From positions 1 to 34,449 of the forward strand of contig JAGATW010000002.1 of NCBI GenBank assembly GCA_017621085.1: a DNA stretch of 34,449 bases, written 5' to 3'. The notes beneath the pieces are model-generated. The model was not told the DNA's origin and searched no databases. It saw only the letters and a list, made by a program, of their open reading frames with translations. This DNA is from Clostridia bacterium. Its GTDB lineage: Bacteria > Bacillota > Clostridia > Oscillospirales > CAG-272. The translations under genes and the position numbers were made by a program. Of the stretch, positions 2,242-4,509 are shown piece by piece; position 1 is the first letter of the stretch; the number at the start of each line of letters is the position of its first letter.

Positions 2242-4104
2242 TTACAATTTTTTAAGGGTAAAGCTATCTGAAATATGTAAATAATTTGCAAGCACGCAAA
2301 CACCGTTTTCATTTAATTCCTCGGTGCTTACAGCCTTGTCATCACATCCTGTTTTTATAAGAGTGTAGTTGCCATTCCCCTCTATAAATGGGTAAATTGT
2401 CGCGTATTCCTGCACGGGATGCTCGGTATATGAATAAATCTTGATTTCATTATAGTTCTTATCGTTAAATTGCAAAACGGTAAGGGTAGGAGTGTTGCAA
2501 AGAATATGGCACTCACTATTTGCCCAAAACTCTCTTTCCCCCTTATACGTGTCGATAAAACATGCTAAATCCTTAATTGTGGCGTTTGAAACCTGTGTCA
2601 AGTCACAGCTAAAACCGATAGGACCACCCACAAGAGCATTTTTAATAAAATCAAGGCTTGCTTCCTCGGCTCTTTGCCAGTTAGCAGTAGAGCTTAAAAG
2701 TAGCTTTTCCTGTGTTCCTCCCACAGGATAAGTCGGTGTAAATCCCTCAACGGAACGAATAGTAGCCCATCTTTCAAGCATTGATGAGGGCATACGAATA
2801 AGTGCATTTTTGAAAATTTCGAGTTGAGTATAAATGCCGTGGCTGTCACTCATCCAAAACGAGTCAAAATACGGGGCATTGGAAAGCGACATTCTGCCGC
2901 CGCCACTTGCACAGCATTCCAAGTGCAAATTAGGGTAATCTGCCTTTATTCCGGAAAGTAAATAATTGTAGCCCTCATAATACTTAACAAAGCTACATCT
3001 TGTCTTATCATAATATAAAGGAGCATTTAAATCGAACTTTATAAACTCAACACCGTACTTATCAATGTTTTTCTTCAAAATATCATAAATAAAGTCGCAA
3101 GCTTCTTTATTTGCAAAATCTATAAAGCAATGCTCCCCTTCGGTTAAATAATATTCAGGATGAGCTTTAACGTTTTCACATTTTGGATTTGCCCTTTCAA
3201 TTTCAAACCAAAGTCCGAATTTAAGACCCTTTTCACGTACTCGGTCAGCAAATTCCGAAAGCCTTCCTCTCATAGCGCTTTCATTTGATTCCTGCCAATC
3301 TCCCACAACATCCCACCAAAGCTGAGTTTTGCCAAACCAACCCGCATCAACGGTAAAATATTCACAGCCAAGCTCCTTAGCTTTTTCTAACTGACATACA
3401 AGATTATCAAAATCAATATAATCAAAATGGCTCATCCATGTGTTATAAACAATAGGCAAGGAATGAGGCTTTTTTTCATTCCAGTATCTATGTAGCTTGT
3501 AAGCGTCCATATCAAGCTTGGATTTAAAGGTGTAATAGAGAATTGTGGGAAGGCTTAATTCCTCGCCGGGATTAAGAACGTATCTGAAATCCTGACTCTT
3601 TATACCTAATTCAACCGTTACAACCTTGTGGTCTAAAAATTCACCGTGACGGCTAACTCTATATTCAAAGCAAGAATTTGACATTATATGAAAAGCAATT
3701 CCTCTGCTGTTTTGCTCGTTATAAATTGCCACAAAGGGATTTACATCTTGATTTGTGCGTATTTCATCACTCATTCCAAAAACACCGCTTACAAGAGGCT
3801 GCCATGCACCAATGCCCTCCTTTATGTGCTTGCTTGTTTGAGTGTAAACCTGATATTCACCGCCATTTAATGTGAATTTAGAAAGAATAGTGCTAATTTC
3901 AATATCTCTGCCTGATATATTTTTAATAGTGTCGCATCTTTCAAAAACCCCTGAGGAGTGTTTGTTAATTACACTTTTTAGCTCAATTTCGTCATTTTTA
4001 TAGTCAATTGTATCTCCGTTTTTTGTAGCAAATCCGATAGCTCTTTCAAAATCACCGTAAACGGTAAACAAATCTGTAATTTTTTCGTTGTACATAAAAT
4101 TCAT
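2242..4104 (-). CDS. GH36 family alpha-galactosidase
   Basis: 620 residues, cytoplasmic (no signal peptide). GH36 enzymes remove terminal alpha-1,6-galactose from raffinose-type sugars, melibiose and galactomannan fragments. The (beta/alpha)8 catalytic half is clear: YNTWMSHFDYIDFDN opens the barrel, YFTVDAGWFG follows, the nucleophile motif is FIKFDLNAP (Asp near residue 358), then ECCASGGGRMSLSNAPYFD and the acid/base motif FWMSDSH (Asp near 420). The N-terminal ~200 residues correspond to the family's beta-sandwich. The protein is shorter than the ~730-aa GH36 enzymes of bacilli. AAAGGAG (4120-4114) lies 9 nt before the ATG, and a consensus promoter lies just upstream. Substrate specificity (alpha-galactoside versus alpha-N-acetylgalactosaminide) is not decided by sequence alone. 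Confidence 0.93.
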   Translation of the reverse strand: MNFMYNEKITDLFTVYGDFERAIGFATKNGDTIDYKNDEIELKSVINKHSSGVFERCDTIKNISGRDIEISTILSKFTLNGGEYQVYTQTSKHIKEGIGAWQPLVSGVFGMSDEIRTNQDVNPFVAIYNEQNSRGIAFHIMSNSCFEYRVSRHGEFLDHKVVTVELGIKSQDFRYVLNPGEELSLPTILYYTFKSKLDMDAYKLHRYWNEKKPHSLPIVYNTWMSHFDYIDFDNLVCQLEKAKELGCEYFTVDAGWFGKTQLWWDVVGDWQESNESAMRGRLSEFADRVREKGLKFGLWFEIERANPKCENVKAHPEYYLTEGEHCFIDFANKEACDFIYDILKKNIDKYGVEFIKFDLNAPLYYDKTRCSFVKYYEGYNYLLSGIKADYPNLHLECCASGGGRMSLSNAPYFDSFWMSDSHGIYTQLEIFKNALIRMPSSMLERWATIRSVEGFTPTYPVGGTQEKLLLSSTANWQRAEEASLDFIKNALVGGPIGFSCDLTQVSNATIKDLACFIDTYKGEREFWANSECHILCNTPTLTVLQFNDKNYNEIKIYSYTEHPVQEYATIYPFIEGNGNYTLIKTGCDDKAVSTEELNENGVCVLANYLHISDSFTLKKL

Positions 4105-4133: not shown

Positions 4134-4162
4134 ATTTTAACACATTGAAAAAATAATGTCAA
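4134..4162 (-). promoter_or_regulatory. Sigma-A promoter of the GH36 gene
   Basis: On the minus strand TTGACA (4162-4157), a 17-nt spacer and TAAAAT (4139-4134) lie about 30 bp before the GH36 start. This shows the gene has its own promoter downstream of the small-RNA unit at 4230-4301. Confidence 0.8.
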
Positions 4163-4229
4163 TTGTTGTTTTGAAAAGCAATCAAGACAAGATTTGAAAA
4201 AAACTCAAATTATGAAAGCCGAGGCTATA

Positions 4230-4301
4230 AAAAATAAAAAGACCGAGGTCGTTAAGACCCCAGCCTTGCAAATGCAGACTCCGGAAGCCTCTTTCTCGGT
4301 C
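4230..4301 (-). ncRNA. Candidate small RNA with its own promoter and terminator
   Basis: A promoter at 4336-4308 (TTGACA, 17 nt, TATACT) places the start at about 4301. The transcript begins GACCGAG (4301-4295) and ends CTCGGTC (4247-4241) followed by a U-rich tract (4240-4229), so its two ends pair in a perfect 7-bp stem that also works as the terminator. Inside are CTTCCGGAG, TGCATTTGCA and GGTCTTAACGACC, each able to form a short hairpin, giving a compact multi-branched fold of about 61 nt before the U-tract. The GH36 promoter lies downstream, so this is probably a free RNA and not a leader. There is no ORF with a ribosome site. I do not match it to a known RNA family. Confidence 0.65.
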
Positions 4302-4307
4302 ATATTT

Positions 4308-4336
4308 AGTATATTACTTATTTAATTGTTTGTCAA
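4308..4336 (-). promoter_or_regulatory. Sigma-A promoter of the minus-strand small RNA
   Basis: TTGACA (4336-4331) and TATACT (4313-4308) on the minus strand are separated by exactly 17 nt. The predicted start is 6-7 nt downstream, at the first base of the closing stem of the small RNA. Confidence 0.8.
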
Positions 4337-4366
4337 TGGGAAATAATGATGTTCTTAAATAAGACT

Positions 4367-4392: not shown

Positions 4393-4402
4393 ATTTTAGG
4401 TT

Positions 4403-4431
4403 GACAAATTGCGTTTTGTGGTATATAATAT
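4403..4431 (+). promoter_or_regulatory. Consensus sigma-A promoter with no downstream gene
   Basis: TTGACA (4403-4408), a 17-nt spacer and TATAAT (4426-4431): both hexamers match the consensus perfectly. It fires rightwards into a terminator about 50 nt away and then into the antisense strand of deoR, so it serves no protein gene. Confidence 0.8.
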
Positions 4432-4437
4432 AAACAG

Positions 4438-4491
4438 CCAAAAGAAAATATTCTTTCAACCCTGCACAAGATTGGCAGGGGCTTTTCTTTT
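4438..4491 (+). ncRNA. Candidate ~50-nt small RNA
   Basis: From the predicted start near 4438 the transcript can form a weak A/U hairpin (AAAGAA-AATA-TTCTTT, 4441-4456). It then forms a strong terminator (CCCTGC 4460-4465 with GCAGGG 4475-4480) followed by GCTTTTCTTTTTC. The promoter-to-terminator distance is only ~50 nt and no ORF fits. It may be a regulatory RNA, or a decoy transcript protecting deoR from antisense transcription. If the terminator leaks, it would make RNA antisense to the deoR 3' end. Confidence 0.5.
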
Positions 4492-4509
4492 TCTTGACAG
4501 ATGTCAAGA
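4492..4509. promoter_or_regulatory. 18-bp perfect palindrome beside the deoR 3' end
   Basis: TCTTGACA-GA-TGTCAAGA, two perfect 8-bp arms, lies immediately after the plus-strand terminator and 36 bp beyond the deoR stop. It could be a protein-binding operator or an RNA hairpin at the end of the deoR mRNA. No U-tract follows it on the minus strand, so it is not a standard terminator. Confidence 0.35.

What the first reader, a model, noticed from the sequence alone, without database searches (positions are those of the whole stretch)
4229..4336. A free-standing ~65-nt RNA gene whose 5' and 3' ends pair, upstream of the GH36 gene
A consensus promoter (TTGACA, 17 nt, TATACT) starts transcription at the first base of GACCGAG. 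About 55 nt later CTCGGTC closes a 7-bp stem directly followed by U-rich sequence. Three further short hairpins can form inside. The downstream GH36 gene has its own promoter, so this is unlikely to be only a leader. No ORF fits. I know no RNA family with this layout.
Basis: partly seen in the sequence, partly recalled or inferred. Interest (0 to 1): 0.7.

Follow-up and report, generated by a model that had tools for sequence, protein, structure and literature searches.

The report
Orphan antisense RNA from phage nuclease genes
This 61-nucleotide RNA gene looks like a stray copy of an undescribed kind of RNA gene that phages carry on the opposite strand of giant protein genes, usually just behind a predicted RNA-cutting domain, and it may be an antidote to that domain.

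Summary
It folds as one rod. It is not tied to GH36: none of 11 orthologue upstream regions read has it. Fourteen related units were found; their stems covary, also between two tandem orphan copies. Ten of the 14 lie antisense in open sense frames (four in ORFs of 811-2834 aa); the six with enough sequence lie right behind an LPD3-type domain of phage-type "polyvalent" genes. The window copy is a linker relic whose similarity ends at the cassette edges. The layout is general: in 22 loci fetched by LPD3 alone, 13 promoter-rod-terminator units are antisense and none sense (synonymous-codon shuffles: 0.02). A second rod type behind MuF_C domains occurs in contigs of 28-61% GC. LPD3 is modelled as a fold resembling CdiA/RelE-type toxins (middling scores). 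No Rfam family matches and my paper searches listed nothing. Best guess: the RNA restrains the neighbouring nuclease-like domain, and orphan copies protect bacteria. Sequence-level constraint and placement are shown; transcription and function are inferred.

The parts
4308..4336 (-). Promoter TTGACA-17-TATACT of the RNA
   Evidence: 11 of 12; same 17-nt spacing in 12 of the 13 units aligned in A7 (L125/G059 lacks a -35 match)
4241..4301 (-). 61-nt rod RNA: P1 arms 4301-4295 and 4247-4241; P2 around 4291-4281 with 4263-4254; apical P3 around 4276-4267
   Evidence: covariation
4229..4240 (-). U tract directly after P1 (terminator-like)
4212..4349 (+). Relic of a polyvalent-protein linker on the opposite strand (reads MKAEAIKNKKTEVVKTP...FSVIFSILLI*LFVNGK**); not a functional ORF
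   Evidence: DNA similarity to the in-gene copies L180 and L121 spans window 4231-4343 only
4134..4162 (-). Separate promoter-like site of the GH36 gene (2242-4104); context, not part of the RNA gene

Best explanation
The window holds an orphan member of an undescribed class of small RNA genes. Class members are promoter-rod-terminator units on the antisense strand of phage-type polyvalent genes, usually directly behind a nuclease-like domain (LPD3, MuF_C or PBECR3). Transcription would start at the first base of the rod and stop in the U tract after its last base, giving a 56-88-nt RNA with paired ends. Shown by sequence: the units, their strand and place, selection at the nucleic-acid level, stem covariation. 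Inferred: the RNA is made; it binds the neighbouring RNase-like domain and keeps it inactive in the cell that carries the gene, as RNA antitoxins do; orphan copies like this one protect the cell against incoming elements.
Against: No transcript or binding data. 6 of 23 LPD3 domains lack the promoter and 12 of 22 LPD3 loci lack a strict unit. Two of ten contigs with the MuF_C-type core have another domain or none before it, L204 has no nuclease call. PBECR3 relatives in Rhodobacter, Helicobacter and Rhizobium phages show no unit. The window copy could be a decaying relic. An early terminator alone would also keep the stems paired. Foldseek gives no PDB match at E 0.001; row 4 is an unrelated designed NTF2-like protein; hhalign does not join LPD3, MuF_C and PBECR3.
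Confidence: 0.4

Rival explanations
1. Cis control: the antisense promoter with its early terminator lowers expression of the polyvalent gene in the prophage state, by polymerase collision or sense-antisense pairing; the rod is mainly a terminator and orphans are decaying remnants.
For: In-gene copies are antisense by position; terminators need paired stems; the window copy still reads as a broken linker.
Against: Orphans keep promoter, rod and U tract where no sense gene is left; the G269 pair has a compensatory change and one shared promoter and U tract; MuF_C rods share an apical core under very different closing stems (partly by selection of the search).
Confidence: 0.27
2. RNA partner other than an inhibitor: the rod is a guide, cofactor, substrate or packaged RNA of the polyvalent protein or its nuclease-like domain.
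For: Same positional link; rods are compact and closed at both ends.
Against: Orphan copies without the protein gene nearby are less expected.
Confidence: 0.15
3. DNA-level element: the inverted repeat behind each domain is a recombination site that shuffles domains, and the promoter is incidental.
For: Units sit at domain borders; polyvalent genes are mosaic (PMC5512222, passages).
Against: Promoter spacing of 17 nt and a U tract on one strand only; the tandem pair has one promoter and one U tract.
Confidence: 0.08
4. Coding artefact: a conserved linker peptide happens to read as promoter and hairpin on the other strand.
For: The -10 box lies in one codon phase in 16 of 17 units and 21 of 21 promoters.
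Against: Synonymous shuffles abolish the units; the RNA 3' end lies in all three phases; same-codon use 210 of 302 inside against 673 of 1583 outside; orphans outside genes.
Confidence: 0.03

Closest known systems
Type III toxin-antitoxin systems (ToxIN, CptIN, TenpIN)
   Same: Small structured RNA, sometimes in tandem, paired by position with a (predicted) endoribonuclease
   Different: RNA is antisense and inside the protein gene, behind the domain; mostly one copy; predicted rod, not pseudoknot; domains are LPD3, MuF_C, PBECR3 (type III features from passages of PMC5086642)
Type I toxin-antitoxin systems
   Same: RNA encoded antisense to the presumed toxin gene
   Different: Not a small hydrophobic peptide gene but a large multidomain gene; structure and orphans are conserved (type I features from abstract of PMC6563280, listing)
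Polyvalent proteins and MuF toxins of phages (PMC5512222, PMC5576092)
   Same: They are the host genes: LPD3, PBECR, MuF-C, ART domains
   Different: Neither text contains the word antisense; MuF immunity was proposed to be small downstream ORFs (passage)
Skipping-rope RNA (RF02924) and other small free-standing Rfam RNAs
   Same: Promoter, short rod-like RNA, terminator
   Different: No match of the window RNA to any Rfam family

Membership tests
Type III toxin-antitoxin | RNA gene upstream of the toxin gene on the same strand with a terminator between | tested here: not met
   units are antisense and behind the domain
Type III toxin-antitoxin | Tandem repeats of the RNA | tested here: inconclusive
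   single in the window; tandem in G269, L239, L240, L242, L251
Type III toxin-antitoxin | Pseudoknotted antitoxin fold | tested here: inconclusive
   nested rod supported by covariation; pseudoknots were not searched for
Type III toxin-antitoxin | ToxN-like endoribonuclease | tested here: inconclusive
   LPD3 model lists CdiA and RelE-type complexes; absence of ToxN rows proves nothing
Type III toxin-antitoxin | RNA binds and inhibits the toxin protein | not testable with these tools
   needs the bench
Type I toxin-antitoxin | Antisense RNA overlaps the toxin mRNA | tested here: inconclusive
   met by position for 10 of 14 units, not for the window copy
Type I toxin-antitoxin | Small hydrophobic toxin peptide | tested here: not met
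   genes are multidomain, e.g. ORFs of 1052-2834 aa
Any Rfam 15 family | Match at the gathering score | tested here: not met
   window; 18 loci with units
GH36 leader or riboswitch | Conserved upstream of GH36 orthologues | tested here: not met
   not seen in 11 upstream regions read
Kink-turn RNAs | NGA opposite a bulge followed by GA (consensus recalled) | tested here: inconclusive
   5' NGA in 12 of 14 and 3' GAC in 13 of 14 sequences, counted by eye; the window and G059 deviate, and the bases also encode linker residues

The most novel reading that the evidence does not exclude
Phages encode, antisense and inside the gene, an RNA antidote behind each injected nuclease-like domain of their polyvalent proteins, in hosts of very different GC content; bacteria keep orphan antidote RNAs as inherited immunity against such elements.
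Probability: 0.33. Interest if true: 0.95.

Novelty: categorically new. Interest (0 to 1): 0.85.

Why it matters
If true, there is an overlooked layer of RNA genes inside what are annotated as giant protein-coding genes, and a simple answer to how carriers of MuF, PBECR and LPD3 domains avoid harming themselves. The pairs are compact and testable in laboratory strains. Gene finders and Rfam miss them because they sit antisense in coding sequence and their closing stems vary.

Tried and rejected
GH36 leader: not supported. Link to the DeoR gene: the RNA is not seen downstream of its four closest orthologues, 87-91% identical (L069-L072). Copies in the genus by blastn: 29 of 30 genomes, own included, had matches at E 1 or better; of the loci fetched I read 26, which look like promoters, terminators or coding sequence. 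Mobile repeat: the own genome has one exact copy and one diverged copy. Genome contigs pattern: 9 stretches; the 7 that I printed look like chance, L110 and L111 were not read. Phage and plasmid records by DNA: one weak partial match and none. Blastn in the family: 13 of 395 genomes at E 0.02; beyond the own genome I count G269, G059 and G280 as real, the rest were not all read. CM hits G375 and G571 judged chance on reading. A loose viral pattern gave 45 loci, one real by model score. PBECR3 relatives in Rhodobacter, Helicobacter and Rhizobium phages: no unit; a human faecal phage record (MT838554, L228): two units antisense to a 1256-aa frame. ART-PolyVal in 269 genomes of the phylum: nothing, and nothing in the controls, so it says nothing. 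No LPD3-type match in phages, ART part only in five records, none in plasmids. MuF_C protein query in viral contigs: nothing. hhalign between LPD3, MuF_C and PBECR3: not significant.

Limits of counts. The 19 MuF_C-type contigs were found by an exact 18-nt core, so the core's invariance there is by selection; several are near duplicates (L237/L241/L248, L236/L247, L243/L253); only 10 of 19 were scanned with Pfam. Several in-gene loci (L121, L122, L126, L180, L182, L209-L212) were fetched because the RNA was found; they are but not in 114, 119 and 142. L218 and L227 are two LPD3 domains of one contig. Alignment A7 was fitted to the model's structure and leaves out the second G269 copy. Of the 8 LPD3 linkers with a promoter but no strict unit, 5 have closing stems of 10 bp or more and 3 only 5-6 bp. 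In the GC-rich contigs the -35 box is weak by eye and only 2 of 19, the same unit twice, pass the strict descriptor.

Full report
What is there. On the minus strand a sigma-70-type promoter (TTGACA 4336-4331, 17 nt, TATACT 4313-4308) is followed after 6 nt by 61 nt (4301-4241) whose ends, GACCGAG and CTCGGTC, pair over 7 bp, and by a U tract to 4229. Alone it folds as a rod P1-P2-P3 (-23.5 kcal/mol). With the downstream flank a 12-bp terminator hairpin re-using CTCGGTC is preferred, so the 3' arm can serve both. No Rfam family reaches its gathering score there, and the weak matches are below theirs.

Not a GH36 leader. GH36 orthologues of 60-92% identity occur in 12 other genomes of the genus. 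In the 11 upstream regions that could be read none has the RNA by eye; five have the promoter pattern of the window's GH36 gene. Downstream of the four closest DeoR orthologues the RNA is not seen either.

Homologues. Blastn in 395 genomes of the family gave clear copies in G269 (two in tandem) and G059. In the tandem pair only the first copy has a promoter and only the second a U tract, so the two read as one transcript; between them P1 goes from GACCGAG/CTCGGTC to GACAGAG/CTCTGTC, a compensatory change. A covariance model of four copies added G280, G214 and a second copy in the window's own genome (G000:C13:58012-58072); 6 of 395 genomes matched, G375 by chance. A model with promoter and tail added G605, G602, G734 and G684 (6 of 394 genomes of the order matched, the own genome included, G571 by chance). 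IMG/VR gave three more distinct units in five contigs. That makes 14 units. On 13 of them 14 of 20 pairs show a change on both sides, 37 cells against 14.5 in shuffles (0 of 500 reach it), and sliding the partners destroys the signal; RNAalifold on the same alignment predicts 14 pairs, 10 with such changes. On an alignment of 8 not fitted to the structure it is 7 of 20 pairs (5 of 500 shuffles).

Where they lie. Ten of the 14 lie antisense in an open sense frame: L121, L122, L126 and L180 in ORFs of 1052, 811, 2474 and 2834 aa, and L181, L131, L132, L129, L130 and G059 in frames of 124-407 aa that are fragments or cut by contig ends. Where the upstream part is present (L121, L122, L126, L180, L181, L131) it is an LPD3-type domain, by Pfam only for L122 above the cut-off and weakly for L121, by alignment for the others. 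An ART-PolyVal domain follows in L121 (1e-13). The window copy, the second own-genome copy and the G269 pair lie outside such genes. The plus strand of the window copy still reads as a linker relic with a stop inside, and its DNA similarity to L180 and L121 covers window 4231-4343 only. The G269 pair lies just downstream of a PARG-type gene (PF10021, 2e-39).

A general layout. A descriptor of the whole unit found 22 units in 258 kb of 22 polyvalent loci, 17 of them antisense in ORFs of 200 aa or more, against 3 in 788 kb of 148 control loci, one of these a copy of the G280 unit. Restricted to 22 loci fetched by the LPD3 profile alone (54 frames, 138 kb) there are 13 antisense units, in 10 loci, and none sense; 200 synonymous-codon shuffles give a mean of 0.02 and a maximum of 1. 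Of 23 LPD3 domains, 9 have a strict unit right behind them and 17 an antisense promoter with 17-nt spacing, none a sense one; 300 synonymous redraws give a mean of 0.34, maximum 4. Six have none. One viral frame of 2834 aa has three units. Of 10 domains before units scanned with Pfam, five match LPD3, two PBECR3, two MuF_C, one (L204) nothing useful; four of these nine are below the cut-off. Inside the LPD3-ART units 210 of 302 pairs of identical residues share the codon, against 673 of 1583 in the flanks (pairs are not independent). The promoter keeps one codon phase (16 of 17), as expected of units that descend with their linker, while the RNA 3' end is found in all three.

A second rod type. 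The MuF_C-linked rods of L206 and L232 share CUUGGGCAAUUGGAGCCC. A scan of IMG/VR for this core found 19 contigs of 28-61% GC; 18 have it antisense in frames of 610-3148 aa. In most of the 21 distinct rods listed the core is an apical GGGC-AAUUGGA-GCCC hairpin inside closing stems of 6-15 bp of very different sequence; for L239, L244 and L249 the stem picked is doubtful. Two cores in tandem occur in L239, L240, L242 and L251. In the 28% GC contig L253 the six codons over the core have a joint frequency of 6e-8 in their frame; the core was the search key, so this counts only as: such a match would hardly exist if the codons were free. Of ten contigs scanned, eight have MuF_C before the core (2e-17 to 9e-30), one InPase, one nothing.

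Reading. Class, place, strand and constraint on the nucleic acid are shown. Transcription is strongly suggested by promoter and terminator, also outside genes, but not shown. That the RNA binds and restrains the neighbouring nuclease-like domain is my best guess (0.4): most units sit behind such domains, rod types go with domain types, four orphan units persist outside the genes, the window's genome gave no LPD3 match (65% complete), and some rods are tandem. Cis-antisense control is the main rival (0.27). It may work like a type III toxin-antitoxin system but is not filed as one, since the gene order is different.

Noticed in passing
window 4401-4495 (+): A 12 of 12 promoter TTGACA-17-TATAAT followed by about 57 nt ending in a CCCTGC...GCAGGG hairpin and a U tract: a possible second small RNA gene, back to back with this one (22.5 bits with model R2).
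   Followed up: no
window 4134-4162 (-): The GH36 promoter overlaps an inverted repeat of the type ACATTG...CAATGT that recurs in several orthologues, perhaps an operator.
   Followed up: no
L124 8582-9709: The tandem RNA pair of G269 lies right behind a PARG/macro-type ADP-ribose glycohydrolase gene on the same strand, while several in-gene copies precede ART domains.
   Followed up: no
L019 1540-1620 (-): A skipping-rope RNA (RF02924) in a genome of the same genus, upstream of its GH36 gene.
   Followed up: no
L218 1837-1931 and L222 1828-1922 (-): Two LPD3-linked rods share an inner GAUG(N)GGCUAAGCU...UUGCUGAACC stretch under different closing stems: perhaps a third rod type.
   Followed up: no
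L045, L071 and L121 742-861 (-): Strict promoter-rod-terminator units outside polyvalent genes, unexplained; possible further orphans.
   Followed up: no
L197 14390-14740 and tRNA genes in L121, L182, L205, L207, L218: tmRNA or tRNA genes lie in several of the loci that hold such units, as expected near integrated elements.
   Followed up: no
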